From the NCBI GenBank assembly GCA_029945375.1, contig CM057061.1, positions 1,860,001 to 1,924,000 on the forward strand: a stretch of DNA of 64,000 nucleotides, given 5' to 3'. Below are positions 31,099 through 50,291 of the stretch, piece after piece (within the stretch, counting starts at the first letter, position 1; each line of letters opens with the position of its first letter). This DNA is from Agaricus subrufescens (taxonomy: Eukaryota > Basidiomycota > Agaricomycetes > Agaricales > Agaricaceae). The position numbers and the translations under genes were made by a program. The notes under the pieces are model-generated. The model worked only from the letters and a program-made list of their open reading frames with translations, searched no databases and was not told where the DNA came from.

Positions 31099-31525
31099 AT
31101 TCTTTTTTTCTTTTTTTTTGTAATCAATGGGATATATTTCAATATCGACCTTAAGGGTGCCATAACGCGTTCCCCGTACTTTGACTACAACTTTGTCCTG
31201 TACTACTACCTCTCCCGACCCGGTAAGGGATTACATTGAAAAGCAAACAACATGATGGGCAAAAGAAATGTATCTGCACGATGAGGTCAAGCGCTCGAGG
31301 AGAAAAGAAAAATCATAATGAATCAAAATAATACAACACCATATTTACCATGGCCCAGGATGATACCAAACGGCCGGCTTCTGGATGCAATGAGTGGAGT
31401 GCAGTGTGGCCATGCAGAGTATGCATGTGATGATAGACAATGAAAGAATTCAAGTAGAAAACACATACGGAAATGGTGGGACGAGATATGCCAGATTCCC
31501 CAAAAGTACCGCTTTAGGCGAAAAC

Positions 31526-31697
31526 CTACTTCTTCGACGGGAACTGGCACTTGAGCCAGTCGTGGTCAAAGCAATTGTTCCAGAAGGAGTGCGCCGTAGA
31601 CTTCTGTTTCAAGGTGGAGCAGTTGACACAATGGTGCTTGGTGGCATCAGTACATTGAGTGACACAGGCGGGGACGTGGTTGTTGGCAGAGTGTGGC
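31526..31697 (-). pseudogene. ORF1 of element E, C-terminal piece
   Basis: The minus strand reads PHSANHVPACVTQC, then HHCVNCSTLKQKSTAHSFWN, and ends FDHDWLKCQFPSKK with TAG at 31528-31526. It contains the second and third zinc modules. The KDZ element sits between the second Cys pair (CPHCGG, at 50023) and this piece (PHSANH). Confidence 0.85.
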
Positions 31698-31711
31698 ACG
31701 TAGCTGATTTA

Positions 31712-31775
31712 TGCATACTGCACATAAGGCATACAGCCAGCTGTACAACCTACATACAGCCCCTTGTACATTTTT
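31712..31775 (+). repeat. Left terminal inverted repeat of the KDZ element
   Basis: It matches the reverse complement of 49944-50007 at 54 of 64 positions without gaps. It contains CATACAGCC twice and the near-palindrome TACAGCCAGCTGTA. Confidence 0.92.
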
Positions 31776-31819
31776 GGAGTGTTACATAAGACTCTGGCTA
31801 TCACAGCTATATATCCAAG

Positions 31820-34475
31820 AGTAGGATCCTACTATTGAGGCTGCACATTGTTATTAATAGAATCCTATTGACTTCCAGATATCAAGCCTAGTAAGATCCT
31901 ACTAACATGAGATCTAACTAAGGAACAGAATCCTACTGGTTCATGCAAGTGATGTGCAGTAGAAGTCTACTGCAGTGGGAATATTGTGAGTAATAGAATT
32001 CTACTGCACTGGGGTATATTGGGGGCAGTAGAATTCTACTGCACTGGGGTATAGTGTGGGTAGTAGAATTCTACTGCACTTAGACATATTGGGGGCAGTA
32101 GAATTCTACTGCAGTGGGGTATATTGTTTGCAGTAGAATTCTACTGCACTAGGGTATATTGTGCATAGTAGAATTCTACTACACTGGGGTATATTGTGCA
32201 TAGTAGAATTCTACTGCACTGGGGTATATTGTGGTTAGTAGAATTCTACTGCACTGGGGTATATTGTGCATAGTAGAATTCTACTGCACTGGGGTATATT
32301 GTGCATAGTAGAATTCTACTGCACATATTGGGAGCAGTGGGAATTCTACTGCAGTGGGGTATATTGTGCGCAGTAGAATTCTACTGCAGTGGGGTATATT
32401 GTGCACAGTAGAATTCTACTGCACTGGGGTATATTGTGCATAGTAGAATTCTACTGCACTGGGGTATATTGTGCATAGTAGAATTCTACTGCACTGGGGT
32501 ATATTGTGCATAGTAGAATTCTACTGTACTGGTGTATAGTGTGGGTAGTAGAATTCTACTGCACTGGGACATATTGGGCGCAGTAGAATTCTACTGCACT
32601 AGGGTATATTGTGCATAGTAGAATTCTACTGCACTAGGGTATATTGTGCATAGTAGAATTCTACTGCACTGGGGTATATTGTGCATAGTAGAATTCTACT
32701 GCACTGGGGTATATTATGGTTAGTAGAATTCTACTGCACTGGGACATATTGGGGGCAGTAGAATTCTACTGCAGTGGGGTATATTGTGCGCAGTAGAATT
32801 CTACTGCACTAGGGTATGTTGTGCATAGTAGAATTCTACTACACTGGGGTATATTGTGCATAGTAGAATTCTACTGCACTGGGGTATATTGTGGTTAGTA
32901 GAATTCTACTGCACTGGGACATATTGGGGGCAGTAGAATTCTACTGCAGTGGGGTATATTGTGCGCAGTAGAATTCTACTGCAGTGGGGTATATTGTGCA
33001 TAGTAGAATTCTACTGCACTGGGGTATATTGGGCGCAGTAGAATTCTACTGGGGTATATTGTGCATAGTAGAATTCTACTGCACTGGGGTATATTGTGCG
33101 CAGTAGAATTCTACTGCACGGGGACATATTGGGAGCAGTAGAATTCTACTGCAGTGGGGTATATTGTGCGCAGTAGAATTCTACTGCAGTGGGGTATATT
33201 GTGCACAGTAGAATTCTACTGCACTGATTATATTGTGCATAGTAGAATTCTACTGCACTGGGGTATATTGCATAGTAATTCTACTGCAATATAGTAGAAT
33301 TCTACTGTACTGGTGTATAGTGTGGGTAGTAGAATTCTACTGCACTGGGACATATTACGCAGTAGAATTCTACTGCACTAGTATATTGTTGCATAGTAGA
33401 ATTCTACTGCACTAGGGTATATTTGTGCATAGTAGAATTCTACTGCACTGGGGTATATTGTGCATAGTAGAATTCTACTGCACTGGGGTATATTATGGTT
33501 AGTAGAATTCTACTGCACTGGGACATATTGGGGGCAGTAGAATTCTACTGCAGTGGGGTATTGCACTAGGGTATATTGTGCATAGTAGAATTCTACTACA
33601 CTGGGGTATATTGTGGATAGTAGAATTCTACTGCACTGGGGTATATTGTGGTTAGTAGAATTCTACTGCACTGGGACATATTGGCGCAGTAGAATTCTAC
33701 TGCAGTGGGGTATATTGTGCATAGTAGAATTCTACTGCACTGGGGTATATTGGGCGCAGTAGAATTCTACTGCACTGGGGTATATTGTGCATAGTAGAAT
33801 TCTACTGCACTGGGGTATATTGTGCGCAGTAGAATTCTACTGCACGGGGTGCATTGGGAGCAGTAGAATTCTACTGCAGTGGGGTATATTGTGCGCAGTA
33901 GAATTCTACTGCAGTGGGGTATATTGTGCACAGTAGAATTCTACTGCACTGGGGTATATTGTGCATAGTAGAATTCTACTGCACTGGGGTATATTGTGCA
34001 TAGTAGAATTCTACTGCACTGGGGTATATTGTGCATAGTAGAATTCTACTGCACTGGGGTATATTGTGCATAGTAGAATTCTACTGTACTGGTGTATAGT
34101 GTGGGTAGTAGAATTCTACTGCACTGGGACATATTGGGGGCAGTAGAATTCTACTGCAGTGGGGTATATTGTGTGCAGTAGAATTCTACTGTACTAGGGT
34201 ATATTGTGCATAGTAGAATTCTACTGCACTGGGGTATATTGTGGGCAGTAGAATTTGACTGCACTGGGGTATATTGTGATTAGTAGAATTCTACTGCACT
34301 TGGGCCTATTGTGGGTAGTAGAATTCTACTGCACTCCAGTATATTGTGGGTAGTAGAATTCTACTGCACTCAGGAATATTGTGGGCAGTAAAATTCTACT
34401 CCACTGGAACATATTGTGAGTAATACAATTCTACTGCATTAGGGTATGTTCTGGGCAGTAGAATTCTACTGCTGT
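31820..34475. repeat. Left subterminal array of palindromic 35 bp units
   Basis: The unit is AGTAGAATTCTACTGCACTG plus GGGTATATTGTGCAT, about 35 bp; array length divided by unit length gives roughly 70 copies. The 14 bp core AGTAGAATTCTACT is a perfect palindrome and is kept far better than the spacer, which drifts (GTGCAT, GTGCGC, GTGGTT, GGGGGC). The outermost units (31820-31980) are degenerate (AGTAGGATCCTACTA, still a palindrome). Higher-order duplication is visible: blocks of ten or so units repeat (about 32,700-33,000 resembles 33,480-33,760). The short frames inside the array are not genes. Confidence 0.95.
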
Positions 34476-34635
34476 GGTCTTATATTCTGTTCCAGAACTT
34501 TCTGATCATTTCCAATGTTTCCATTTCTCAAACCAACAATCTTAAAAACAGTTAGATAGTTCAAGTATTTTTTATCCAGTATTTTTTATCTCAGAAAATC
34601 AAGTAATTATTTCAATCATTGTATCTTTATCTACT

Positions 34636-35938
34636 TTACTCTTTTCTTTGTGCTTGCAATTCCTCCATTTGTGCTTGTAATCTTTGTAGCAAGATACTTT
34701 GGGCCTCCAATTGTGTCTCTTGTGCTCTAATTCTTTCTTCTGCCTGCCTTGTTCTCTCTTGTGCTTCTTGTGCTTCTTTTTCAGCTATTTCTTTCTCTTT
34801 GATAGCAACCAATGCATCTTGTCTCCGAGATAACAATAATCTGTTCATCAAAGATTGATAGTTTTGAATAATTTCCAGCGTGTCTTGCTTAGCTTCTTTT
34901 CTGAGCCTAGGAGAGGTATAGTGCACAGCAGCTGAGGAGCCACTAGCTTGCTGACACACTAACATCATATAGACATCACACTGTACAGCCAACCGTTCAC
35001 ACTGTCAATAATATGAATAAAGTTAATCACAGATTCAAAAATAATAGTTTACTTGCCCTTGCAATAATGTCTGGTAGTTCTCTTCTATATCTAGAAGTTG
35101 ACTTTCCAAGCATATTGATTTTATCAGGAAGTTCTCGAGTTCTTGCAACATCTTATCTTTGTTAAAATTTGACAGAACAGCTTTTTTATAATATAAACAT
35201 ACCATAAACTGCACTTCCTTTCTTGACACCCTCTACCAAGCCATAAACTGGGTTTCTCACTGAAGGGACAGTTTTTGAATTTTTTTTAAGTGATAACTCT
35301 TGAACATCTTCAAAATGGTTATTTTCAGGATCTAGTTCCTGATTATCTTGATTGAGAAGTTGTGGATCAATCTATATATATTAGTTCTTATCTATTCCAT
35401 GTAAAATAGTAACTTACCATCAAATCAGATGGATTTGAGATCATATTGTTGATCTGAGAGTCATTCTAAAGTTTAAGTTAAATTAGTATTTTATGAGTAA
35501 AATTGAACTTACAAATTCTCTATTTGTTGAATTTTCTGGAATACTCAAGCTATCTGGAAAATTGAAGAGAGGTATTGGTGTAGATACAAAATTATTCCTG
35601 GGTGTAGGAGATGAATTTGGAAGTGACACTGTGGGTGAATCAATTTCAGGAGAAAATATATTTGTAGAAAAAGCCTGAGAAATTGCTGGAGTTGCAGAAG
35701 GATCTAAAAAAAAAGTACTGTAAGAAAAAAAATCTGTATATGTAGATAAAGTATTTGAAATACTTGAGCAAGAAGCTGTTTCTTGGTGCTTTTTCCTACA
35801 GCTACAAATAGCCTTAAGAGGGAAACCTGGGCAAATATGGCATTTAGCAGGCTGTCTTTTCTTCTTCTGGATAGCATTGCCACTATCCAAGAGTTTTTGA
35901 GTGGGGCGCCGAGCACGTGGAGTACGAGGAGAATGCAT
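34636..35938 (-). CDS. KDZ-element gene A: 370 aa coiled-coil protein with N-terminal Cys motif
   Basis: Five exons on the minus strand: 35938-35513, 35465-35418, 35371-35203, 35156-35053 and 35001-34636. All introns have GT-AG ends and join in frame to 370 codons. The N-terminus is basic (MHSPRTPRARRPTQKLLDSG) and has a C-x2-C...C-x-C motif (CHICPGFPLKAICSC, residues 33-47), followed by a Ser/Pro-rich stretch. The last 100 residues are a long charged coiled coil (EKEIAEKEAQEAQERTRQAE, LEAQSILLQRLQAQMEELQA). It is transcribed divergently from the transposase gene, with about 300 bp between the starts. I do not recognise the family; a DNA-binding or oligomerising accessory protein of the transposon is a guess. 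Confidence 0.75.
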
Positions 35939-36242
35939 AAGAGGATGGTTGAAATGCAGGAATGATTAAAATGCTTGTAATACTAGCTTCTTATATATTC
36001 TTGGATCAGAAATTTTAATATTGGGAAAACTGTTGACTATTGTTTATTTGATTCTAGAACTTTCCATGCAATTTATTTCTAATATTAGATTTAGACTCAG
36101 CAAATTTTGGGGCAACTATTTGTATTTGTTTATATTAATTAATAGAACTTGCTAAATATAGCAATCAATTTTCACTGTCTACATATATATTAAACTCTAA
36201 GTGACTATTGTTCCTCACTCCTCCCTTTATTCCTTCATCCCA
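35939..36242. promoter_or_regulatory. Divergent promoter region between gene A and the transposase
   Basis: The 304 bp are AT-rich and lie between two start codons facing away from each other. No TATA box can be assigned with confidence; TATATATA-like stretches occur near 36183-36192, about 50 bp upstream of the transposase ATG. No palindromic AGTAGAATTC copy is present here. Confidence 0.5.
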
Positions 36243-39200
36243 ATGTCTAAACAAGGCCAATCACAAAAACGTCACAACAAAAACCCTCCCAATCCTATTC
36301 AAATAACATTAGATACACCACCTAACTCTCCACCTACTTTAACTCTTGATAACTTTGATAAATCTCCAGATTTATCTATTTCTTTTACACCCCAAAAAAA
36401 ACAAAAAAAAGGACATTCAACAAGATCTAAACAGGCATTGTTTATCAAAGATCCTGTTCCAGCTATAAACTCTATCCCTTTTGAATTTTCTTCACCAGAT
36501 ACTTTTTTTTCTGATTCATTGAATAGTGGCCCTTCTCTAACTACTGCTGAAGGTGAAGGGTCCACTGAAATTTCAGAAGCCACTTCAAGTGGATTTTTGA
36601 ATCCATTTTTAGACCATTCTTCCATATCTTTGGCAACAGACTTTTATCATGAATTTGTTGAAGCTGTGCTTGTCAATGCAATGCCATTTTATCCTATAAG
36701 TAAGGATGTGTTTGTAATACAAGGATGGGATACAAAAAATGGATCATCTACAGTAAGATTTATACTGTAACTAATTTATAAAATCCAGTTTACTAATACA
36801 ATTAATGCAGGGCAAATGGCATCATTTACAAATTGATAGAGCATCATCAACTCTAGAACCTGTTTGTTACTGCACTGCAGCAACAACAAATTTCAAATGT
36901 GTTCATCAAAGGTTTTTAAAAGAATATGGTGAAGGCATATTTGAAAACAGCCCAGGTAAATGATAGTCTTATCAATGTTTTTATTATCTAACTATTTTAC
37001 TATAGGAAAGCTTGAACTTGTTTCAATTTTTTCTAAGGAATTGATTGATGCAGAGCACACAACATTGTTCTCTGTTGGATCTAGTCAACTTCCTTCACTG
37101 GTGAAAGCTAGAGCAGTAATCACATTAGTTGGCTCAGACATTCATTCTGGTTTGTGGCAATGTTCCAAAGATGGAACAAATAATCCTTTCTGCCCTCATA
37201 TCAAAACTGTCAAGAAATACCTGGGAGAATCTTCTGAAAACTTGGCACTAGATATAAATCATGGATCATCAGGTAAACATAATTATGTTATAAAAACTCA
37301 AAGCTAATCATACTTATAGTTTCAATTTCTATGCCTAATATCAAGATTATGCATTCTGTATCCTATATCTCAATACCTCCCCCAACCTGGGCAAGAATTT
37401 CTACAGATAAGATTTACAAGATTGTTCCACCAGTTCTAACCTTTGATGGACCACTATTATTATCTCCATCATCTCAGTGTTCTTGTGGACAGCAATTCCA
37501 GCCAAACCATGACATTTACACCAAACCTTGCATCATCCATACTCTTACCAAGTCAATCCACACCCAAATTCAACTGCAACATTGCACACATTGTCAATCG
37601 TCCTGGTACAAAGCCATTGGTCCTGACTGCAGTGATCTGGGAATATTCAATCTCAATAATCATGCCCTGTTCACCCATGATCTCTTAGAAGAGTACACTG
37701 CAGCATATGTGTCTTCTGAAACTCCATTTACTGCCTGGATCAAGACAGTATCAATCAGATATCAGAGATACCACTCTGATTCTTCTTTTGTGGATGAAAA
37801 AATTTTCAGAGCAGCCTGGTTCAGCTATGCTAGCCTACTTACTCTTGAAAATGACTTTCAATGTCCTGAATGTGGAATAGCTCCAGAAACAGTTATATGG
37901 GATGGTGTTACTGTGGGTTTCAACCAGAAACATTTACATTCATCACTCTACCCCCCAACTACTATCCACCAAAACTCTACCATCAGAAGCTGTTCTTACT
38001 ACCGCCATCAAACTGTTATTTCATCACCAGAAATCCGAAAACTAATGGCAAACATATTTTCTGGACCACTCAATAGTGGATCAGTCACTACTTCAAAAGG
38101 AAAATCAAAAGAATGGGAGGAAGAGTCTACAGATGATGAAGATATACAAGACCAAACCAAACAGACACAAGATATGATGGCTAGAATCAAGCAAATACCT
38201 CTATTACAAGAAATGCTTGAAATACAAGAACCAATTCTGCATTCCTTTTTTGAGAAATACTGCTCTCCATCAGCTTTATTACTCAAGAAAAAATGCCCCA
38301 CTGAAGTTATAGCATTTTTCAAACAAGTAAGTTGCATATTTAATTGTTTAATACTAGACTTAAAAATTTTAGATTAGTAGCTCAGATTCTATTCTTCAAG
38401 TGATCAACAGACCTGCACTACAACAACTCAAAGCATTTGTGGCATTTCCATCACCAACTACACTGAATTATCTTGCTTGCATTCCATGTCTATATTGGCT
38501 ATTGAAAATGGAACAACAAGCAACTGAACCTTTTTGGGATCTATCAACATTGGCACTTTGTACACAATTAATCAAGAAAACAGAAGATGTCACACAGCAA
38601 ATGGTTATATATGAAAGCCCTGCTCTTGACCCAACAGCACACAATGCTGATGGTGGGTGGAAAAAGGTAAATACCAAAAGAAATTTCAATAAATTAATAT
38701 ACTAAGACTATTTTTAGAGTGGCACAAAGTATAGTATGCCCCAGATCAGGCATAGGCCTACATATCCTGGACTCAGATATGAAAATATCAAGGAACCTAA
38801 AAAACGAGGAGGACAGTGTAACAAATACTACCATGAATATGGACAAAACCAACTCACAGGTGGGCTTATGTGTGCATGGTGTCCACATAGTATATGCTAT
38901 GGATATCATTGCATTCCTTCAAGTGAAGGAAGAAATGATGTTTTCTCAGCTATGGTCACCAGATGGCCTAAAGCTCCAAAATATGTCATTTATGATTTTG
39001 CTTGTCAACTTGGTCCATATTGTAGGACCAGAGAACCAGAGTTTTTCTCTGATACAGTTTTTCTTATTGATAATTTCCATTCACAAGGTCATAGCAATTG
39101 TAGCAAGGCCTTTTTCATGTCTACATATGCTGAAAGTCAGCCTTTATTAGCTAGGGTTAACTCTAGTGCAGCTGAATGTGGAAATGGTGGACTGGCAAAA

Positions 39201-39305
39201 ATTAGGAAGTCTATCAGATATATGGGACAGGAAAGGGCCATTTTATATACTAGTGTTTTTCTTTCATTATGGAACCGTAGCAAAATTCAAAAAATGGCAA
39301 AATAG
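36243..39305 (+). CDS. KDZ transposase, 936 aa, six exons, apparently intact
   Basis: Exons 36243-36752, 36811-36955, 37006-37272, 37320-38326, 38373-38666 and 38718-39305. The five introns are 46-58 nt with GT-AG ends, and all join in frame. A SWIM-type finger (C-x-C-x8-C-x-H, residues 189-202) precedes a Cys/His cluster starting CSCG (361). The catalytic part has CPECG...IWDG (489-503), a cysteine-rich block (C775, CAWC 793-796), GYHCIPSSEGRNDVF (804-818), YDFAC (833-837), DNFHSQGHSNC (859-869) and an AAEC glutamate (894). This order is that of KDZ transposases, an RNase H-fold DDE-like family. It would cut and join element ends in the nucleus. It converges with gene B, whose stop lies 82 bp downstream. 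No stop or frameshift is seen, so it may still be active. Confidence 0.92.
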
Positions 39306-39387
39306 TACTTTGATTTGCTTAGATGTATTATTTAATAGTATAAAAAACTTGAACACTTTATTAAGAGTGCTACAGAGTAGAAATTGG

Positions 39388-42030
39388 TTATATAACATTA
39401 TCAAAAGACAAATTAAAACTTTGATCTGTATCAGAAGACTCCATCCAATGTCCAACCCAATATCCCCAAACCCTGCCAGCAATAGTTTGAGGTGGAGCAT
39501 AACCATTTGTAACTAAAAAACAAGATGACTGATAATTCCAATGAAGTATCAAAGCACAGTCTGGATTTTTGCAATATAAAGACATTGGCTGTAAATCTGT
39601 AAAATAATTGAATACAGACATAGATGAGTGACAATATTGAATATACCTTTATGTACACCTGATATCTTTTCTGAGGGATTTTGATTAGGAAAAACTGGCT
39701 TGACAGACCAGGGTGAAAATGCTCCACAATTAAGACAACAAGTTGGAGCAGGAACACCACAAGGACTATAAAGGGCATTGACCCAACGTATAAAGCAAAA
39801 CCCATTATCACCTCTCCTAGACATCATAATTCCATCAATACTTGCACCTAATTCATATTGTGCTTGTAAAAGATTGGGAAAGACTGATGGCTTTTGGCTG
39901 ATGTAAATTGTAGTCACAAAATTCATCAAAAATGTGTGAACAGATGTTGGATGAAAGTCTTTTTTGACAAAGGCAGTTGTAAGCCAAAATTTGCTTGAAA
40001 ATGGAAGTTAGACAGGAGAATAACAAATTCAAAAATACTCACTCCTTTGTAAAATTATGAATATGTGCAAGAAGCTCCTTTTGTAGAAAAGGACCTTCAC
40101 AACACAAAAGAAAAAGGCTGGCTCTAAGATCTGTTTTTATAATTTCAATAAATCTCTTGGGAAAGAGAAAGGTGAAAAACTAGGACAATTTATTAGTATA
40201 TCAAGATTTTACTTCAAATCAGGTTATACTTCACATTTTCAATATCAAAAGCAGATCTATCTTCATCTTCATCTCGTCCTGTGCCTTTAACCTAAAGGTC
40301 ACCATCTGGTGTTGAATGAGTAGTTATGAAAATCAAAAAACGATCAAATCTAATTTGAATTAGGCATAGATTTATACTAGGGATAAATTTACTCACTGTT
40401 TGAAATCTGGAAGAAGTTTTTTCATATTTTTCCAATGAATTAAGCGACCCTTTGTATCTGTGGCATCATCAAATTCAATAATAAAATGCTGAATTTTGCT
40501 AGTAGGAGTATTGAGAAAGTAGTTTTTGAGATGAAGATAAACCAGAGATGCCACAGTAGACTCTGTATCAAAGCCTTTGAGTACAAAGCTTATCAAACAA
40601 AGAGTGCCAGGGCATATTTCTGGCAGTCAACTTCTACAAACTAGAGAAGACTTTAGAAATACTACTTGAGTTGAGTTTTTGAAAGGCTAAAATTATGGTT
40701 AGATCAATTTCAATGCAATAAGTCTGTGTACTAACAACATAGGGAGTTACTGATCCCATTCTTGTATCTTTCTCTTTCCAGCAATAAGGGCAGGTAAATT
40801 TGCCAAGATCAGGTTGTAGTGCAATGTCACCAAGGCACTTGTAGCAAACAGCACAGTGACATTTGCAGAGATATAGGTCTCCTCCATTGAGACAACATGA
40901 ACACCACTAAAAAATTATTAGATAGATAGAAATTTAACTTGAAAAATAAATCACAGAGCTGGCTTGAGAATCATCAACTTCCTAGCAAACAATCAGAAAA
41001 GAGCTCAGATATATTCAAGAGAATCACTCAGTTACATCATTCTCATGTTCAGAACTATCAATGTCCATCATATCATCATCCTCCCCCATACCAAGAGCAG
41101 CAAGGGAAGACTTGCTAGCCTCACCACCTGCCACATAACTGACACCAGCCCTATAATGCAGCCTACGCTTTGTAGCCCCATATGATTTCTTCAAAGCTCT
41201 GTCTCTAACCTCACCCTCTTTCCCTTTGACAGCTTCCTTCCACTCTTTCCTGACTGAAGCATTCCACTTGAACTGACCATGACGATTACGGAGTTTACGG
41301 GGAAGATTGGGAATAGCACCTTACAAAATTATAAGTATAGAAATATGTTTTATAGATTTGAGCTGACTAATTCTTCTTACACCAGGAACTTGACCACTAC
41401 CAGATGCTTATAAAAGTATAAGAAAGTGTTACACAAGAATAAAATTTTGACTTACCATCTTGAACCTGAGTACTCTCATCAACTTGACTGGTAGAACTGC
41501 TAGCAGGAACTTGACCATTATCAGATACTTATAACAGTATAAGAAAATAGTATACAATAATGGAAATTATACTTACTATCTTGAACTTGAGTAATAGTGG
41601 CACTAGTAGTACCAGCAGAAACTTGACTATTGAGAGGAGCTTATGACATTATAAGAAAATGATATACAACAAATTGGAAATTATACTTACTATCTTGAAC
41701 TTGAGTGGTAGTGGTACTAGTAGTACCAGCAGAAACTTGACCATTAACAGAGGCTTATAACATTATAAGAAAATGATATACAACAAATTGAAATTATACT
41801 TACTGTCTTGAACTTGAGTGGTAGTGGTACTAGTAGTACCAGCAGAAACTTGACCATTAACAGAGGCTTATGACATTATAAGAAAATGATATACAACAAA
41901 TAGAAATTATACTTACTGTCTTGAACTTGAGTGGTAGTGGTACTAGTAGTACCAGCAGAAACTTGACCATTAACAGAGGCTTATGACATTATAAGAAAAT
42001 GATATACAACAAATTGGAAATTATACTTAC
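39388..42030 (-). CDS. KDZ-element gene B: multi-exon protein with RING/PHD-like Cys cluster and tandem mini-exons (5' end uncertain)
   Basis: The minus strand gives a chain of short exons with GT-AG introns. The N-terminal part is a tandem array of mini-exons (41451-42030) encoding a Thr/Gln/Val-rich repeat. Next comes a basic exon (IPNLPRKLRNRHGQFKWNAS, about 41323-41045) ending in an acidic stretch. A Cys/His cluster (CCLNGGDLYLCKCHCAVCYK ... CPYC, from 40906) resembles a RING or PHD finger. Later exons read ICPGTLCLISFVLKGFDTES, GASIDGIMMSRRGDNGFCFI, CCLNCGAFSPWSVKPVFPNQ and LYCKNPDCALILHWNYQ. The stop is near 39388. I could not find the start codon, and exon ends beyond those named are approximate. 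The family is not recognised; chromatin or ubiquitin-related roles would be speculation. Confidence 0.6.
41451..42030 (-). repeat. Tandem array of exon-intron units in gene B
   Basis: The 5' splice-site block (CTTAC on the plus strand) recurs at 41451, 41572, 41686, 41799, 41912 and 42026. The core period is 113-114 bp. Each core unit is a 63 nt exon (21 codons, TSVNGQVSAGTTSTTTTQVQD) plus a 50 nt intron (GTAAGTATAATTTC...TTATAAG). Exon length is a multiple of three, so any number of units keeps the frame. Inner copies are almost identical; the downstream ones (72 nt exon) are diverged. Confidence 0.8.
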
Positions 42031-42299
42031 TATCTTGAACTTGAGTGGTTGTGGTACTAGCAGACTTACATGATGTCGAGTAACAAGGGATAAGGAATAT
42101 TGTGTGATTAAAATGTGAAGATCCTATAAAGCAGAGTCAGCAACAAAGTTTTTGAAAGCGAGAGATGTCATGGACCAAAACGGCAGATTCTCAATGAACA
42201 AAGAGGGCCCCGTGATGAAATGGACGAAAACGGACACTAAAAAGTTACAAATGAGTGAGACGAAGGCAAACAAGGCATGTGCGGGAAGATAAAAGAAAT

Positions 42300-42830
42300 G
42301 GCTTACAAATATTCCAACACAGAAGGGGGCGCGTGGTGAACAGACACAAAACAAGACAGAAGATACACTAAATCCAAAAATTAGCGAGGTAAATTCAAGC
42401 AGGGCATGCATGGGAATATAAACAGTAGCCTACCAAGGTCCCAACACAAAAGGGGGCGCATAGTGAATGGGCGAAAACAATCACATACACTAAAGTCACA
42501 TATAAGTAAGACTAATTCAAGCAGGGCGTGCGAGGGAAGACAAACAAAGGCCTACCAAAGTTCCAACACGGAAGGGGGCGCGTAGTGAATGGGCGAAAAC
42601 AAATACATACACTAAAATCACAGATAAGTGAGACCAATTCAAGCAGGGCGTGCGCGGGAAGATAAACAATGGCCTACCAAAGTCCCAACACAGAGGAGGG
42701 GTGTGCGACGGATGGACAAAACAGACACAAAGCATGCACTGAAACGTCACGAATGAGTGAGACAAATGCAAGCACGGCATGCGCGATAGAATAAACGATG
42801 GCCTACCAAGGTCCCAATGCCCTCCTTCAT
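42300..42830 (-). repeat. Tandem repeat, about 122 bp period
   Basis: GGGGGCGC blocks recur near 42325, 42452 and 42574 with a diverged copy near 42696, together with AAGCAGGGCGTGCG and GCCTACCAAAGTCCCAACAC. The open frames inside encode only repeated hydrophobic text. The array may be non-coding, or a decayed 5' extension of gene B. Confidence 0.75.
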
Positions 42831-43059
42831 GCAGCAATACTGGAGTGAGTGTGTGATAGTTCAGTGGCAAAGAATTCGATACCTGCGGAGGATCTACTGC
42901 AGGATAGACCGTGACAGAGCATTCCGAAAGAACATTTGAGGACGCGAGACAGAACCAGGGAAAGCACAAACAAGTGAAGCAAGAGACATTGAAAGGCTAC
43001 ATAGGAGTTAGATAGGTGTGGGATAGAATAAAGAATAGCGCACCAAGCTCCTAACAAAT

Positions 43060-44350
43060 TGACCTATCGCGATCCTGTGACAATGCAGAACTAATGCAGA
43101 AGTAGAGGCTCAAGCATTGTAAGCGCTTCAGCGGACTCCTCACGATCCCTCCACCAAAGTGAGAGGCATGGTCAGCGCATGTCGACGCAGCCCATGGTGA
43201 AGACATCCCCAAGCCCATACCACAGCTGACATGAAGAGTCAAGCGGGTCTATGAGTGATCGGAGAGGCTGAAGAATCTCAGCCAATAGGCCGAGGGTGTC
43301 CTGATCACACCCAATCTACGAAGTCGACATGCCTTTTCCAAGTCTTATTGCGGGGGCGCCTACCCACAACTTGACCATACTCAGTCAAAACAACAGCAAG
43401 ACGGGGGACAGAACGGCAAACAATCCGAGGGGAGGGGGGTGAAAGTCGAGGAAAAGGCCTACTCGACCATGCAGTATCCTTTTTATTGCGTGCATGCGGG
43501 CAGCGCCACTGATATCACAAGATTGATTCATTGCAGGTTCATTGCGCTGTGATCGTCGCGAAGTCGAGGCAGGGTCGTGCCAGGGTCCCATCGCAGCTGT
43601 CAGCGTCCCGAGTGCCAAGCCAGGCAAGTCAATGCAGTATAGACAACAAAAACATAAGGCTTACCTTGTTTGCAGCTTTCTCCACTCGCGAATCTTCATC
43701 AGCCTGGTAATCAAAGGCTCAAAACTACAAAGGTATCGACAGTCTACACACGCAATAGGTAAGCGCCTCGAATAGATACCAGCGGGACGCCTTCAACGCA
43801 AAAAGCTAGTCTTGTTCGGCAGCAGTTGCCTTGCTGGCAGACTATCCCGAGATCCATTATTAGACCAGGGTTGAGCCTGCGTGTGCTCACATGAAATCAT
43901 CACATGGGCAGGATGAATCTAATCTGAATTGAAGGCTACAATTATGAAAGACTAAAGCGGCAACAAACATATGAGCATCCCGCATGAATTCAAGTCTTCC
44001 TCAAAGAACAACTAGGACAGTTTATTAACAGTACGCATGAAGTTCATCTTATTTGAAAGAAGGAATAGAAGGCAACCACATGAATCAGGGTTGCGTCTGA
44101 TTTGTGTCATGGGTCGACGACGGAGTCTGTCTGCATCCGAGAAGCAGCCGAGAGGTGTTGATTTGCGGTGTGCATACTGCCCGAACCTACATACAACGTT
44201 GGGTAATATAATCGAGTTTTGCTAACATGAGGCCCCGAGCAACATGTATGACTCCATACAGACAAATGTTATAGAATACAATAGCCCCGAGCTGTTGAAC
44301 AAAGCTGGGAAACAACAACTTACCTCAATAGAGTATCAGTGTCACGGTGT
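43060..44350. other. Unassigned KDZ-element interior
   Basis: Only short frames below 80 codons are present. No motif, tRNA or repeat was recognised. Base composition is closer to 50% GC than the gene-bearing parts of the element. Confidence 0.5.
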
Positions 44351-44384
44351 TGTTGTCGACATCGTTACCTGATGTGACAATCAA

Positions 44385-46560
44385 TGATATCCCTGCTTAA
44401 CTTATACCAAAACCGTCGTTTGGTTGCCTACCCCCTGCTTGTGGCCTTTGCAACTCACGATGCCTCGGCATTGTCAAGCCTTCACTCTACCTGGTCCATG
44501 CACGGGTCAAATGCAAGATTGCGACCACACGCGGGCGAAAAAACACGGGGGACGATTGCGCACATACCATCATCACATCACACTATTCCTATGCTGTTGC
44601 TCAGGGCCATCGCGTTACATTGATACCGTTAAAGACAGGTCAAAGGAATCCCGCAATGAAATCATGTAATTGTATGTACTAATTTATTCATATTCTCGCC
44701 ATCTCAAAGCATGATACACGACTTTGTTGTGTTATGATCAGCGGGCATCCGCCCACGGTAAGACCACAGCCATTGTACCTCCACTGTACCTACCCCATGC
44801 ACAGGTCTAATGCAAGATCGTGACCACACGCGGGCGAAAAAACACGGGGGACGATCGTGCACATACCATCATCACATCACACTATTCCTATGCTGTTGCT
44901 CAGGGCCATCGCGTTACATTGATACCGTTAAAGACAGGTCAAAGGAATCCCGCAATGAAATCATGTAATTGTATGTACTAATTTATTCATATTCTTGCCA
45001 TCTCAAAGCATGATACACGACTTTGTCGTGTTATGATCAGTGGGCATCCGCCCACGGTAAGACCATGGCCATTGTACCTTCACTGTACCTACCCCATGCA
45101 CAGGTCTAATGCAAGATCGCGACCACACGCGGGCGAAAAAACACATGGGGGACGATCGCGCACATACCATCATCACATCACACTATTCCTATGCCGTTGC
45201 TCAGGGCCATTGCGTTACATCGACGCCGTCAAAGGCAGGTCAAAGGAAACCCGCAATGAAACAATGTAATTGTATTAATTATTCATTTTCTCACCATCTC
45301 AAAACATGATACACGACTTTGTCGTGTCTTGATCAGTGGGCATCCGACCACAGCAAGACAATGGCCATTGTACCTTCACTGTACATGGTCCATGCGCAGG
45401 TCTAATGCAAGATTGCGACCACGCGTAGGCGAAAAAACATCGGCGGGACCATCGCAATCATGTCATCATCACGCTAGAATTACAGCACTGATCAGGGCCA
45501 TCATGTTACATTGACACTGTCAAAGGACTGTCAAACAAATCCCGCAATGAAGTCATACAGTGTATTACATTGACACCGTCGAGCCAAAGGGATCCCGCAC
45601 TGAACTGTACGTACGTATTCATTTGTTAATTTTCGCGCCATCTCGAAACATGAGACACAACTTTGTCGTTGTAATCAGTGGGCATCCGAGACCACGGCCA
45701 TCGCACCTCGCGATGTCACAGCAACGTCGAGTCGTTGCTGTACTTATTCCATGAGGAGGGCAAATGCGAGATCATGGCTAAAATATATACTAACGACTAA
45801 TACGGCTGCCACGCCACTATTGTGGTATCCCTATGCCGTTCATCAGGGCCATCACACCCAGCTGCATTAGCGCCACAGAGCATTGAAGAAACGGTAATTG
45901 TAAATATTCATTTCTCTAGAATTGTGCACTTCACTGACACTCATCTTGACACACGACCCACAGTAAAGTTGTGCCGTGATCACAGCAATCCTATGGCCAT
46001 CTCACCTCGCTGTACTCAGTCCATGCGCAGGTCAAATGTAAGATCGTGACCATGTGCAGGCAAAAAAACACAGTTACGGACATCACAGCCACTATACGAT
46101 CATCGTGCTATCCCCATGCCATTGATCAGGGTCATCGCACCCTGTTACATTGACGCCACATACCATTGAATGAGTCACACAATGAAGGCCGTAATGGTAT
46201 GTATTGATTCGTCTTGATCTTTGCAGTCTGCTGACAATCTCTTTTAGACAATACACAACGAAGTTGCGCTGTGATCAGTGGACATCTGATCATGGCCATC
46301 ACACCTCACGATCATGCCATTGCTGTACTTGTGCAGACGAAATGCAAGATTAGCGAAAATATATGATTGTGGCCATTGCAGCAGCCATACCATCATCATC
46401 CCATTGCTATGGCACTGATCAGGGCCATCATACCCCGTTATCTTGACACTACAGAACATCAAGGAATTTGAAAGCCATGGTTGTACATATTTATTTGTTA
46501 TTTACTTTACTGACAGTCATCCTGATAGATAATGCACAAAGCTGTCCACATCTGATTACA
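44385..46560. repeat. Tandem repeat with about 300 bp period, seven or so copies
   Basis: The anchor GATCAGTGGGCATCCG (or variants) lies at 44736, 45035, 45330, about 45673, 45978 and 46273, giving spacings of 295-343 bp. Copies at 44.4-45.3 kb are nearly identical (GACCACACGCGGGCGAAAAA, TCAGGGCCATCGCGTTACAT), and divergence grows to the right. The short frames in it (for example 44424-44669 and 45109-45309) are repeated text, not genes. Confidence 0.9.
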
Positions 46561-47074
46561 GCAAGATCACAGCTATGTTATCATCCTGCCATTACCATAG
46601 TGTGATCAGCATGTAGGTAGAAGTAGACATGGATTTAATCATGACCATTGTATCTCACAATGGTGTATCAATGACATGCTATCCCAGGGCATAGCATATC
46701 CTCATAGTAACACCTTAAAAAAATCATAGAATACTTAACTATGATGTTTTTGTCATAGTGGAATCCCATAATGTTAATTTAAGCTGTGTAGTTTCTGTAG
46801 AATAGTTATGCTACTGTTACATCACTGTCCCTGCATGTCACAATTCATGCTGTCAGTCTTATAGACATGCTGTAATTCTATATACCAAATTCCCGGGACT
46901 GCTAGCTTGCTTCTCTGGCTAGATTAATTTTCCAAGAGCAACTACTGATGCCATCCCATAGTTCAGCTAGATAGGGTATAATGAAATTGCTTAAATACCC
47001 ATTGGTCAGTAGAATTCAACTAACTTCCCAGTGCCCTTTCACTTGTTCTTGGAAGAAAATCTTGTCTACTCAAT
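46561..47074 (+). promoter_or_regulatory. Upstream region of gene C with a lone palindrome-like site
   Basis: AT-rich, no gene. AGTAGAATTCAACT at 47008-47021 matches the array palindrome at 12 of 14 positions and lies about 55 bp upstream of the gene C start. It is the only such site I found away from the two arrays. Confidence 0.5.
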
Positions 47075-48682
47075 ATGTCTTCAGAGCTTGCTCACTACAG
47101 TCAGTATCAAATGATTATATCTAATCAAAATTACTGACAGTGATTGTTAGCCTTTCTACAACTGAAGCAAGAAGAAAAGACTTTGCTTGCAGTTATCAAA
47201 GACCAACAAAATCGTTTGGAACTTTTTCAGGCAAAGAAAAAAACTGCCAAACGTCAAAGTATGTTACTTTTGATAGTTATCTAGATATTTATTATAACAA
47301 TGAATATTTTCAGAGAACATAAAGTCTATAACTATGACTATTACAAATAAGAAAAAGTGCTTGGATAATGTTCAAGAACTACTCAATAGCCTGTATGAAG
47401 ATGAGGCTACAACTGATGCAGCCTCAGTATCTGCTGTAACTGATGAGGTCTCAACTTCAGCTTTTACCCAATCTCAGCATAATTCGCCTACTCCTCCAGT
47501 TGAAGAAGATATACTAGCCATTATTACATCACCCACCTCTAACACTGCTTCAACTTCTATGGCTCCTGTTCTGGCATCTGCTCAGTCTCCCCAATCTACC
47601 ACTCCTCTTAACACTCCACCTGGTCCAACTATTTCTGGTTATTTCTCTGGTGAAGATGATGATGACTATCAACCATATACTGGAACTGCCAAATATGTGG
47701 AGATTGATAGTCCTGATGAAACTATGAACCCTTTGACTCCTGAAAACAAAGAATCCTGTGAGTTTAAATTTCTCTAACAAACCTGACATTATTTTGATTA
47801 TTTCCAGCATTTAAAAATTTGAAAAGACAAGCTGATTATGACTCTTCAAGCTCAGAAGTGATTATACCAGGTAATCTTTTTGAAGCTCTATTGGTACTTT
47901 TTATTAATAGCATTGTAGATCTGAAAAAGGGAAAAGAAAAGGCAACACCCAAGAGGCCTAACAAGAAAGCCAAGTCTGAGCCAAAGCAGTACAGCCACAG
48001 TATGTATTCTATATTATTCAATATCTACTTATTAATCATATATGAAACAGCTGAAGGGATTGAAATTTTAACTGATTGGCTTACTGCTCAAGTCTTTGAA
48101 AAACCATATATTCCAACTTCTCTCAAGAACCAAGTCAGGAAAAATCCTGGATTTCTACCAGAGGCATACACTACTACCCAGGCCCTTACTTTGGAAATGC
48201 TTACCAATGAATCTGGTAATACTGTCTGCATCCACCATGACTTGAAAGACAGAGTTACATCACATGTTGATGGTTCTCAGTCTATGGCAGATATCCAGAT
48301 TCATGGTGTTCCAGTTCCTAGGATAATGAAGACTAGAAAAAATCCTAGGAAACAGGTTGAGGGGTATTTTTCTTGTGGTTGTGCTATTGAAACTGCTATT
48401 GTAGGGGCTGCTCTCTGGAAAAGCTGGGAGGTTTCTTCTTTCATTCAGGATAGTAAAGTAACTGAAGGGTTTGGTTCACAACCCCTCAATCCAAGGAACA
48501 CTCTTTTCATTATTCAAAATTTGGATAGAGTTTGGGGTATCAAAGGTGCAGATTTATTCAGTGGATCTATTGGGGACAAGGAAACAACTGAGAAGATGAT
48601 GATGAAGAAAGCTGTAGAACATATTAGCAATGCTTACTATGAGAAGTTTGGAGTCAGTCTAAATGTAGAGGAGTTGTTGTAG
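47075..48682 (+). CDS. KDZ-element gene C: 466 aa protein of unknown function
   Basis: Proposed exons 47075-47099, 47151-47258, 47314-47757, 47808-47999 and 48051-48682, all with GT-AG introns, total 466 codons. A short N-terminal coiled coil (FLQLKQEEKTLLAVIKDQQN) is followed by a Ser/Thr/Pro-rich low-complexity region, a basic nuclear-signal-like stretch (KRPNKKAKSE), and a folded C-terminal domain of about 205 residues. The last includes GYFSCGCAIETAIVGAALWK and NLDRVWGIKGADLFSGSIGD. The 51 nt intron at 48000-48050 is also free of stops, so retention is possible. The first exon is the least certain. I do not recognise the domain. It ends 75 bp before the right palindromic array. Confidence 0.7.
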
Positions 48683-48756
48683 ATAATACTGAATTCTGAT
48701 GTTGTGCACTATCATATAACAAAATATGAGGTTGCTCTTTGACAAATTTCCTATGT

Positions 48757-49905
48757 CAGTAGAATTCTACTGCACACAACTATGCTACATGAGTAGAATA
48801 CTACCATACATAATTATTCTCTATCAGTAGAATTCTACTGAAAACAGCTATTGTCCACAAGGAGAATTCTACTGCACACAGCTATTCTCCACCAGTAGAA
48901 TTCTACTACACACAGCTAATCTCAATGAGTAGAATTCTACTGCACACAGCTATTATCAATGAGTAGAATTCTACTACACACAGCTATTCTCCATGAGTGG
49001 AATTCTACTACACACAGCTATTCTCCATGAGTAGAGTTCTACTGTACACAGCTATTCTCCATGAGTAGAATTCTACTGCCCACAGCTATTTTCCATGAGT
49101 AGAATTCTACTCCCCACAGCAATTCCTATGTCAGTAGAATCCTACTGCACACAGCTATTCTCCATGAGTAGAATCCTACTGCTCACAGCTATTCTCCACC
49201 AGTAGAACTCTACTGCACACAGCTATTCTCCATGAGTAGAATTCTACTGCACACAGCTATTCTCCATGAGTAGAATTCTACTGCACACAGCCATTCTCCA
49301 CCAGTAGAATTCTACTGCCCACAGCAATTCCTAGGTCAGTAGAATCCTACTGCACACAACTATTCTCCATGAGTAGAATCCTACTGCACACAGCTATTCT
49401 CCATGAGTAGAATTCTACTGCACACAGCTATTCTCCATGAGTAGAATTCTACTGCACACAGCTATTCTCCATGAGTAGAATTCTACTGCACACAGCTATT
49501 CTCCACCAGTAGAATTCTACTCCCCACAGCAATTCCTATGTCAGTAGAATCTTACTGCACACAGCTATTATCAATGAGTAAAATTCTACTGAACACAGCT
49601 ATTCTCCACCAGTAGAAGTCTACTACACACAGCTATTCTCCATGAGTAGAATTCTACTACCCATAACCATTCTCCAGTGGTAGAAGTCTACTGCACACAG
49701 CTATTCTCCATGAGTAGAATTTAACTGCACACAGCTATTCTCCACAAGTAGAAATCTACTGCACACATTTATCATACAATAGTGGAATCCTACCACACAC
49801 AGTTTTTCTACACCAGTAGAATCCTATCATGCATGTTTGTCTCATCCCAGTAGGATTCTATTATATTTGATATCCCATGTTAGTAAAATCCTACTACCTA
49901 CAGGC
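48757..49905. repeat. Right subterminal array of palindromic 34 bp units
   Basis: The unit is AGTAGAATTCTACTGCACAC plus AGCTATTCTCCATG, 34 bp, about 30 copies from length. It has the same 14 bp palindrome as the left array but an unrelated spacer. Units toward the outer end (49740-49905) are degenerate, as at the left edge. Confidence 0.95.
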
Positions 49906-49943
49906 AAACTACTGTATGACTGCTGCTGTTATACAGGTTGCCT

Positions 49944-50007
49944 AAAATGTACTGGTGGCTGTATGTGGTTTGTACAGCCGGCTGTATGTGTTATGTACAG
50001 TATACAT
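49944..50007 (-). repeat. Right terminal inverted repeat of the KDZ element
   Basis: Reverse complement of the left TIR at 54 of 64 positions. It contains the perfect 14 bp palindrome TACAGCCGGCTGTA and two CATACAGCC copies (as reverse complement). Confidence 0.92.
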
Positions 50008-50029
50008 CAGTCCCCTGCCCCAAGTGCGG

Positions 50030-50291
50030 ACCACCGCAATGAGGGCATCGGATACCTTTTGATCAGCATACATTGGAGTGGTAGCCCCACTGCTGGCAGT
50101 GAGTGCACAGGGTGTAACCGGGACGAGGGGCAGCACCTCGGATTTGGCAGTTGTGGCCTCCAATAGAAACCTGCTTACCAATAAAGTTCCTAGCATTACT
50201 GCCAGAAACGGAGTCAGTGATGTCAATCCATGTGACACAAGTGTCAGCACGGCGGGATGTTCGCATGAAGCAGGGAGCATGGGCGATGTGG
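50030..50291 (-). pseudogene. ORF1 of element E, middle piece
   Basis: The minus strand reads HIAHAPCFMRTSRRADTCVT, WIDITDSVSGSNARNFIGKQ, GGHNCQIRGAAPRPG, CTHCQQWGYHSNVC, a stop at the position of the Arg in VCRSKG, then GIRCPHCGG. This is the core plus the first zinc knuckle. It is bounded by the KDZ element on the left and element C on the right. Confidence 0.87.

What the first reader, a model, noticed from the sequence alone, without database searches (positions are those of the whole stretch)
31698..50022. Giant KDZ transposon with intact transposase, companion genes and massive palindromic subterminal arrays
The boundaries come from 64 bp TIRs (54/64), an imperfect 7 bp TSD, and restoration of the interrupted ORF1. 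The cargo is more than a transposase: three further spliced genes of unknown function plus about 10 kb of repeats. KDZ elements are known from mushroom genomes, but I know of no description of one bounded by roughly 100 palindromic sites. The intact 936 aa transposase suggests recent activity.
Basis: partly seen in the sequence, partly recalled or inferred. Interest (0 to 1): 0.93.

Follow-up and report, generated by a model that had tools for sequence, protein, structure and literature searches.

The report
Giant fungal transposon with palindrome arrays
This is a real 18-kb jumping gene of a fungus, present in many copies, whose two ends carry dozens of short mirror-image DNA sites; distantly related jumping genes in the same genome keep the same mirror-image half-sites and spacing while the bases around them have changed, which points to a protein-docking platform that the element needs.

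Summary
The finding holds up and is larger than reported. The window carries an 18,325-bp DNA transposon (31697-50021) with an intact 936-aa CxC4/KDZ-type transposase. Six further full copies were read; their ends fix the boundaries and show 8-bp target duplications (4 of 7 perfect, window 6/8, 2 unmatched). Within a subfamily the gene blocks are 99.7-100% identical, so the family moved recently. Joined flanks match uninterrupted retroelement relatives.

New here: 26 distant relatives of the transposase (41-51% identity) lie in the same genome. All 26 have homologues of gene A (head-to-head) and gene C nearby; gene B was found only in the window's family. The distant arrays that I could see (one fetched locus, listings on one contig) use other inner and linker bases, but keep AGTA-N6-TACT, mostly at 34-bp pitch: 1760 paired sites in the genome against 1 for a reversed control. 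Two gene-less derivatives keep ends and arrays. A lone near-match site sits 66-67 bp before gene C in 7 of 7 copies.

Best reading: an array-bound, probably element-encoded protein needed for end recognition or regulation, working like CACTA TNPA or VANDAL VANC but in another transposase superfamily. The binding protein is not identified.

The parts
31697..50021 (+). whole element, 18,325 bp; starts CACGTAGCTGAT, ends CCCCTGCCCC
   Evidence: ends aligned with six other full copies
31689..31696 (.). left target-site copy GAGTGTGG
   Evidence: identical to the uninterrupted retroelement relative inside the window
50022..50029 (.). right target-site copy AAGTGCGG (6/8, two transitions)
   Evidence: 8-bp length from 4 of 7 copies with perfect TSD
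31711..31770 (+). left inverted repeat
   Evidence: 83% over 60 bp with 49948-50007
49948..50007 (-). right inverted repeat
31821..34469 (.). left array: 72 sites GTAGAATTCTAC (<=2 mismatches), mostly 35-bp pitch; AGTA-N6-TACT 70 times at gap 6
48759..49894 (.). right array: 34 sites, 34-bp pitch, different linker from the left array; AGTA-N6-TACT 26 times at gap 6
34636..35938 (-). gene A, about 354 aa, exons 35938-35513, 35465-35418, 35371-35203, 35151-35053, 34958-34636 (inner exon bounds tentative); basic Cys-containing N-terminus, coiled-coil-like C-terminus (read from the sequence)
   Evidence: joint model open in three subfamilies; dN/dS 0.07-0.16 in last exon, 0.29-0.57 in first exon; homologue beside all 26 distant transposases
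36243..39305 (+). transposase, 936 aa, exons 36243-36752, 36811-36955, 37006-37272, 37320-38326, 38373-38666, 38718-39305
   Evidence: dN/dS 0.13-0.20
37451..37828 (+). CxC4 cysteine cluster (residues 352-477)
   Evidence: PF18717 E 7.8e-42; coordinates
38718..39305 (+). C-terminal exon with the conserved YDFACQLGPYC / FHxxGHxxC / NSSAAECGNG motifs, taken as the KDZ catalytic end (motif reading is inference)
   Evidence: alignment with mushroom homologues; P0001 hits PF18758 here at E 1.8e-5, just under cut-off
39388..42123 (-). gene B, exon structure uncertain; exon 39926-39647 conserved; Cys-rich segment (PHD-like only at E 0.32); tandem exon+intron repeats 41502-42060
   Evidence: C-terminal part found only in this family
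42061..46710 (.). variable middle: tandem repeats 42241-42817 and 44479-45455, only partly shared between subfamilies, no gene recognised
47008..47021 (.). single internal near-match site AGTAGAATTCAACT, 67 bp before the gene C start codon
   Evidence: present unchanged in 7 of 7 copies, 66-67 bp before ATG
47075..48682 (+). gene C: start 47075-47099, 47151-47258, then 47314/47334-47757, 47808-47870, 47919-47999, 48051-48682; conserved 209-aa last exon
   Evidence: dN/dS 0.15-0.22 in last exon, 0.55-0.65 in exon 47334-47757; 13 close copies and a homologue beside all 26 distant transposases

Best explanation
It is an autonomous-looking cut-and-paste DNA transposon of a CxC4-bearing KDZ-type lineage. 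Its conserved core is gene A and the transposase in head-to-head orientation plus gene C, between two subterminal arrays of spaced palindromes. Shown: ends, 8-bp TSD, many copies, the three co-travelling genes, and conservation of the half-sites AGTA-N6-TACT across families whose inner and linker sequences differ. Inferred: each palindrome binds a protein dimer, and an array of up to about 90 sites builds a multivalent complex that marks element ends for the transposase and also touches element promoters (a lone near-match site before gene C; a site 66 bp before a distant transposase). The binder is most likely element-encoded. Gene A is my first candidate (basic Cys-containing N-terminus plus coiled-coil-like tail, present beside every relative found); the Cys-rich modules of the transposase or the gene C product are alternatives. 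Gene-less derivatives that keep only ends and arrays are presumably moved in trans.
For: Ends, copies, TSD. Intact transposase in 6 of 6 copies aligned and purifying selection. Near-identity within subfamilies (0-7 differences in 7,295 columns, 0-6 in 2,107). GTAGAATTCTAC 786 exact in the genome against 0 for the reversed word. AGTA-N6-TACT pairs 1760 against 1; GAGTA version 491/505 against 0. Gap scan: AGTA/TACT pairs at gap 6 are 70, 26 and 20 in the window left, window right and L059 arrays, against 7, 1 and 2 summed over the 15 other gap values, and 0 at gap 6 (4 at all other gaps) in the rest of the window. In L059, half-sites stay at about 90% identity while inner and linker bases fall to 45% and 41% (half-site figure inflated by site selection). 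26 of 26 distant transposases have gene C nearby on the opposite strand and gene A nearby. End 12-mer GGGGCAGGGGAC: 26 of 33 occurrences lie within 6 kb of focal or distant element genes, all 26 pointing inward. Two short derivatives with ends and arrays and no hit to any element protein. Lone near-match site before gene C in 7 of 7 copies, and 2 sites in 8,570 bp of distant interior against 0.11 expected.
Against: No binding or transposition was measured. The binder is not identified: gene A has no Pfam hit and no database homologue at E<=0.001, gene C had one database homologue, and both structure models are too poor to use (pLDDT 36.8 and 49.7). The candidate DNA-binding start of gene A and the middle of gene C evolve faster (dN/dS 0.29-0.57 and 0.55-0.65) than the parts that I call conserved. 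Distant arrays were read in one fetched locus and in capped match listings from the first 1.8 Mb of one contig. One distant array (L059) mixes 33-bp and 23-24-bp steps, so the 34-bp pitch is common, not universal. Seven of 33 gene C homologues have no transposase hit within 25 kb. No single distant element showed the end 12-mer at both ends without mismatch. Copies with near-identical gene blocks differ up to two-fold in site number, so no exact number is needed, and assembly errors in arrays are possible.
Confidence: 0.6

Rival explanations
1. The arrays are docking sites for a sequence-specific anti-silencing protein (the job that VANC does in Arabidopsis VANDAL elements): the protein coats the non-coding ends and keeps host methylation or heterochromatin off, so the whole element stays expressed. 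Gene C or A would be that protein.
For: Similar anatomy to VANDAL21: short motif, high density, tandem repeats in non-coding parts, fast turnover, element-encoded extra gene (PMC5735166, passages; PMC10398659, abstract and outline). Site numbers differ up to two-fold between copies with near-identical gene blocks. The only database homologue of gene C found (P0015, Agaricus bisporus) is annotated as one protein with a weak Tet_JBP-like N-terminal part, E 0.0098, under cut-off.
Against: Arrays sit at both ends beside the TIRs and keep their palindromic half-site across families, whereas VANC21 motifs stand in one orientation and VANC targets vary considerably between related elements. No Tet_JBP hit lies near these elements: the 3 hits in this genome are about 72 kb from the nearest CxC4 transposase. 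No methylation data.
Confidence: 0.2
2. A host transcription factor or chromatin protein, not an element protein, reads AGTA-N6-TACT, and the element exploits it.
For: A lone near-match site lies before gene C in 7 of 7 copies.
Against: In the listed part (contig C1 up to 1.77 Mb, about 100 of 996 rows) paired sites form 7 clusters, of which 6 flank 3 elements; an independent host use was not seen there. A conserved binder is equally well supplied by gene A or the transposase, which are present in every element found.
Confidence: 0.12
3. The palindromes work as DNA hairpins or cruciforms rather than as protein sites.
For: Most sites of the window's family are perfect palindromes of 12-14 bp, 29 of them of 16 bp.
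Against: In L059 the inner 6 bases are self-complementary in 0 of 46 scanned sites, leaving a 4-bp stem, yet half-sites and gap are kept.
Confidence: 0.04
4. Passive minisatellite growth at the element ends with no function.
For: Site numbers and linkers change quickly.
Against: Arrays with unrelated linkers share the same half-sites, the same gap and mostly the same pitch; two short gene-less copies keep them.
Confidence: 0.04

Closest known systems
KDZ (Kyakuja-Dileera-Zisupton) DNA transposons of fungi
   Same: CxC-type cysteine cluster before a transposase core; 8-bp TSD as reported for Zisupton and for a Dileera family (PMC12730594, passages); Cryptococcus KDZ1-3 are 9.2-11 kb with 139-241-bp TIRs and 4-8-bp TSDs (PMC12810828, passages)
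   Different: 18 kb; CxC4 rather than the CxC1 of Cryptococcus or the CxC2 of Pleurotus KDZ elements (PMC7641404, passages); two conserved accessory genes without Pfam hits; large arrays of spaced palindromes; no TET/JBP hit in the element. Kyakuja as described (7-bp TSD, CA..TG ends, no TIRs) does not fit
CACTA / En-Spm elements with TNPA-type proteins (for example the 20.5-kb soybean Tgmt*)
   Same: size, two-component logic, repeated subterminal motifs taken as cis-determinants bound by an element-encoded protein, motif diversification between families (PMC2613891, passages)
   Different: unrelated transposase; CACTA ends and 3-bp TSD there against 8-bp TSD here; 4 and 24 repeats in Tgmt* against 72 and 34 here; here half-sites and gap stay constant across the arrays seen
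VANDAL elements with VANC anti-silencing proteins
   Same: dense arrays of a short motif (YAGTATTAY for VANC21) in non-coding parts, fast tandem-repeat turnover, element-encoded extra proteins (PMC5735166, passages)
   Different: motifs in one orientation rather than palindromic; different transposase superfamily; anti-silencing not tested here
Galileo (P superfamily) of Drosophila
   Same: internally repetitive long ends with many short transposase-binding sites; proposed to supply specificity by number (PMC3688188, abstract and outline only)
   Different: sites inside the long TIRs themselves; THAP-domain transposase

Membership tests
KDZ transposons | KDZ transposase core (PF18758) | tested here: inconclusive
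   window protein: no hit at E<=1; homologue P0001 (47% identity, aligned through the C-terminal exon): 1.8e-5, 25.0 bits against cut-off 26.6, and its database record lists PF18758; 3 of 12 aligned members hit at E<=0.01
KDZ transposons | associated CxC cysteine cluster | tested here: met
   CxC4 PF18717, E 7.8e-42, 142.6 bits against cut-off 26.9; 12 of 12 aligned members
KDZ transposons | 8-bp TSD (as for Zisupton and Dileera) | tested here: met
   4 of 7 full copies 8/8, window 6/8, 2 unmatched; 2 short copies 8/8 and 7/8
KDZ transposons | terminal inverted repeats | tested here: met
   83% over 60 bp, inset by 14 bp
KDZ transposons: which subgroup (Kyakuja, Dileera, Zisupton) | placement in the transposase tree | not tested
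   no tree built; Kyakuja as described has 7-bp TSD and no TIRs, which this element does not match
CACTA / En-Spm | CACTA-type ends, 2-3-bp TSD, CACTA transposase | tested here: not met
   ends CACGTAG / ...GCCCC and 8-bp TSD; the only Pfam hit of the transposase at E<=1 is CxC4
VANDAL / MULE | MULE transposase | tested here: not met
   no MULE domain in the Pfam scan of the transposase at E<=1
VANC-like anti-silencing system (function, not descent) | element protein binds the motif array and removes silencing marks | not testable with these tools
   needs binding and methylation data

The most novel reading that the evidence does not exclude
A further, independently evolved array-reading system of transposons: KDZ-CxC4 elements carry a three-part core (gene A, transposase, gene C) and write a fixed code, AGTA-N6-TACT at about 34-bp pitch, at both ends, while the other bases of the array drift. 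One lineage-specific protein reads the code as a long multivalent filament that lets the transposase tell element ends from chance sites, sets the element's own gene expression through lone promoter sites, and possibly strips silencing.
Probability: 0.35. Interest if true: 0.85.

Novelty: new variant of a known kind. Interest (0 to 1): 0.76.

Why it matters
KDZ elements are a notable part of the DNA transposons in mushroom genomes (with Plavaka about half of the DNA elements, which are 6% of the Marasmius oreades genome; PMC8290104, passages), yet how their transposase recognises element ends is, as far as I saw, little described. Here one genome holds at least four array types seen in letters (the window's family; C1:1029-1031 kb; C1:1498-1499 kb; L059) with unlike linkers but the same half-sites: a natural experiment that gives the likely binding code and makes it directly testable. 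If an accessory protein reads the arrays, CACTA, VANDAL and KDZ elements, with unrelated transposases, have arrived at the same solution: many sites read by an extra protein. Two conserved accessory gene families (A and C) without Pfam hits are defined as parts of the machine. On novelty: in the titles and abstract openings listed (capped listings, 91 rows in all with overlaps) I saw no description of palindromic subterminal arrays in KDZ elements. This is not proof of absence: the original KDZ paper is not held, and the supplement of PMC8290104, which describes KDZ ends, was not seen.

Tried and rejected
Gene C domain structure from two sequences: mean pLDDT 36.8, dropped. Transposase homologue P0001 with 8 sequences: mean pLDDT 49.7, catalytic part mostly under 50, so no fold search was run. 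PDB sequence search with the transposase profile: 0 matches at E<=1. Database search with gene A: no homologue at E<=0.001. First gene models for A, B and C made from the window alone broke in the other subfamilies, so models open in three subfamilies were used. That joint run gave an 8-exon transposase with weaker splice sites, which I rejected for the 6-exon model that is open without indels in 6 of 6 copies. Gene B's second C-terminal exon gives dN/dS 0.76-1.66, so it may be misread. TET/JBP cargo was considered: the 3 hits in the genome are not near these elements. A hairpin function was set aside because distant sites are not self-complementary inside. I first hoped that the lone site in L059 marks the gene C start; the predicted start lies about 0.64 kb further on, so I do not claim that. 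Helical-phase readings of the 24/34/56-bp steps were not pursued. The first pairwise comparison of copies was spoiled by a culling option and redone. The organism was not identified.

Rows left out of counts: for gene C, 4 of 37 distant rows that are second pieces of the same loci (33 used); for gene A, only the 26 distant last-exon rows were used, distant N-terminal rows set aside; copy C1_992 was left out of the frame and identity counts because it is interrupted and lacks part of the transposase; copies known only by their ends (C4, C36, C38, C8:1403/1414, C10:623, C5:3141, C6:729, C6:3161) were not read through. The clusters in the listing were counted by eye, on about 100 of 996 rows, all on contig C1. 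Genome searches score only the best candidates, so their counts are lower bounds.
Full report
OBSERVATION. A search with the left end gave 17 places, and a search with the right end gave 28 rows including cross-matches to left ends. Six further complete copies were fetched. Aligned with the window, they fix the element at 31697-50021, 18,325 bp. Ends are CACGTAGCTGAT... and ...CCCCTGCCCC; the inverted repeat is 83% over 60 bp and inset by 14 bp. Four of 7 copies have perfect 8-bp TSDs, the window 6/8, and two do not match. The joined flanks match two retroelement relatives over all 400 bp at 83% and 82%; a relative at window 14841-15055 (minus) has the same length across the junction and carries GAGTGTGG.

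GENES. The transposase is 936 aa in six exons; it has no stop and no exon indel in the window and 5 other copies. It carries CxC4, the cysteine cluster associated with KDZ transposases (E 7.8e-42). Its 14 database homologues are from mushroom species as named by their sources (that these are Agaricales is recalled). The best, P0001 from Agaricus bisporus, has the KDZ domain at 1.8e-5, just below the curated score. Models for A and C that are open in three subfamilies give about 354 aa and 399 aa (C without its first exons). dN/dS between subfamilies is 0.13-0.20 (transposase), 0.07-0.16 (last exon of A), 0.29-0.57 (first exon of A), 0.15-0.22 (last exon of C), 0.55-0.65 (C exon 47334-47757), 0.09-0.37 for one B exon and 0.76-1.66 for another. 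Genome-wide, 11 of 13 close copies of the CxC4 exon have no stop, and 13 of 13 close copies of the last gene C exon have none.

AGE. Gene blocks are nearly identical within subfamilies: 7 and 2 differences in 7,295 columns and 0 and 0 in 2,107 for C10_686 against C3_3494 and C10_1422; 0 and 6 for C8_2330 against C6_27. The window is 8-11% away from both groups. The family jumped recently; the window copy itself looks older.

ARRAYS. The window has 107 sites within 2 mismatches of GTAGAATTCTAC, 81 exact. The seven copies hold 71 to 126 such sites and together 457 exact ones; the whole genome has 786 against 0 for the reversed word. Left and right arrays share the palindrome but not the linker. 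The middle of the element differs strongly between subfamilies, while palindromes persist.

RELATIVES. The CxC4 exon search also found 26 distant exons at 41-51% identity. Each of the 26 has a gene C homologue 5.2-23.0 kb away on the opposite strand, and each has a gene A homologue on the opposite strand, 2.5-3.0 kb away in 25 cases and 14.3 kb in one; none of the 26 gene A rows lies elsewhere. Seven of 33 gene C homologues have no transposase within 25 kb. The C-terminal part of gene B was found only in the focal family, at 12 places. So A, transposase and C form a shared core; B is a local addition as far as this search sees.

THE CODE. A fetched distant end (L059) begins with GGGGCAGGGGAC, the reverse complement of the window's right end, and carries an array of different words. 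A gap scan there shows AGTA/TACT pairs 20 times at gap 6 and 2 times at the other 15 gaps; the window arrays show 70 and 26 at gap 6 and 7 and 1 at others; the rest of the window shows 0 at gap 6 and 4 at all others. In L059 inner and linker bases are near random (45% and 41%) while half-sites stay near 90%, a figure inflated by how sites were picked. Genome-wide, two sites 10-40 bp apart occur 1760 times against 1 for the reversed control, and a GAGTA version 491/505 times against 0. In the part of the listing that is shown (contig C1 up to 1.77 Mb), 6 of 7 clusters flank three distant elements on both sides, mostly in 34-bp steps where several sites follow each other, with linkers unlike those of the window where letters are printed (by eye; elements). 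L059 mixes 33 and 23-24 bp. The end word GGGGCAGGGGAC occurs 33 times; 26 lie within 6 kb of focal (11) or distant (15) element genes, all pointing inward, 7 elsewhere, reversed control 8. Among distant elements it is nearest a transposase in 8 and nearest gene C in 7, so it probably tips both ends, though no single distant element showed it at both ends without mismatch; the focal family has it only at its right end.

CIS REQUIREMENT AND PROMOTER SITES. Two short elements (about 3.4 and 3.9 kb, C10:313816-317255 and C6:3094773-3098626) have the same ends, TSDs of 7/8 and 8/8 and the same palindromes. The parts held (1.5 kb from each end) give no tblastn hit to A, transposase, B or C at E<=0.01, and none of the four gene searches reported a hit there. 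A lone site AGTAGAATTCAACT lies 66-67 bp before the gene C start in 7 of 7 copies. In distant interior sequence there are 2 sites in 8,570 bp against 0.11 expected (P about 0.004): one 66 bp before the predicted transposase start in L060, one about 0.64 kb before the predicted gene C start in L059.

MECHANISM. Shown: mobility, co-travelling genes, and constraint on half-site, gap and commonly pitch. Inferred: dimer binding per palindrome, multivalent complex, role in end recognition and regulation. Candidate readers: gene A (basic Cys-containing start, coiled-coil-like tail; read from the sequence, no domain hit), transposase modules, gene C. Rivals are anti-silencing (VANC-like), a host reader, hairpins and neutral minisatellites.

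KNOWN KINDS. It belongs with KDZ elements by CxC4, homologues, TIR and 8-bp TSD (PMC12730594 passages; PMC12810828 passages), with the KDZ core itself only indirectly shown. It works like CACTA/TNPA (PMC2613891 passages), Galileo (PMC3688188 abstract and outline) and VANDAL/VANC (PMC5735166 passages; PMC10398659 abstract and outline) without belonging to them. Iyer et al. 2014, the founding KDZ paper, is not held and I rely on what other papers say of it.

Noticed in passing
C4:45225 and 63947, C10:686189-704599, C10:1422249-1440334, C8:1403357 and 1414819, C36:185655 and C6:3161735 (genome G000): Crossed target duplications: C4 left = C10_686 right (ttgaatct), C4 right = C10_1422 left (tgaacaga), C8:1403 left = C8:1414 right (tcctgacc, inverted arrangement), C36 left = C6:3161 right (attacctc, both near contig ends). 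Either ectopic recombination between 18-kb copies or assembly joins inside them (by eye).
   Followed up: partly
window 41502-42060: Gene B contains about five tandem 113-bp units; in the window model four successive 63-bp exons, each with its intron: exon multiplication inside a transposon gene.
   Followed up: no
C2:3846077-3917925, C7:2163099-2235142, C14:91632-163711 (genome G000): Three places have a TET/JBP hit and a CxC4 transposase exon at the same spacing of about 72 kb with the same scores, suggesting a three-fold duplication of more than 70 kb or large shared mobile segments.
   Followed up: no
P0015 (Agaricus bisporus var. burnettii): The gene C homologue is annotated as one 636-aa protein with a weak Tet_JBP-like part at its start (E 0.0098, under cut-off); perhaps a merged gene model of neighbouring element genes.
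   Followed up: partly
C1:992848-1019025 (L040-L043): 26-kb copy with perfect TSD, about 7.3 kb of extra sequence in the gene B region and a gap over window 38485-38870 of the transposase.
   Followed up: no
window 31497-31696 and 50030-50229: The element sits in a retroelement ORF with many relatives in the genome (51 rows), one of them inside the window at 14841-15232.
   Followed up: partly
C1:1055299-1055349 (genome G000): A pair of spaced palindromes identical to that at C1:1028882 but in the opposite orientation and about 22 kb from the nearest CxC4 transposase; perhaps the other end of a larger or rearranged element.
   Followed up: no
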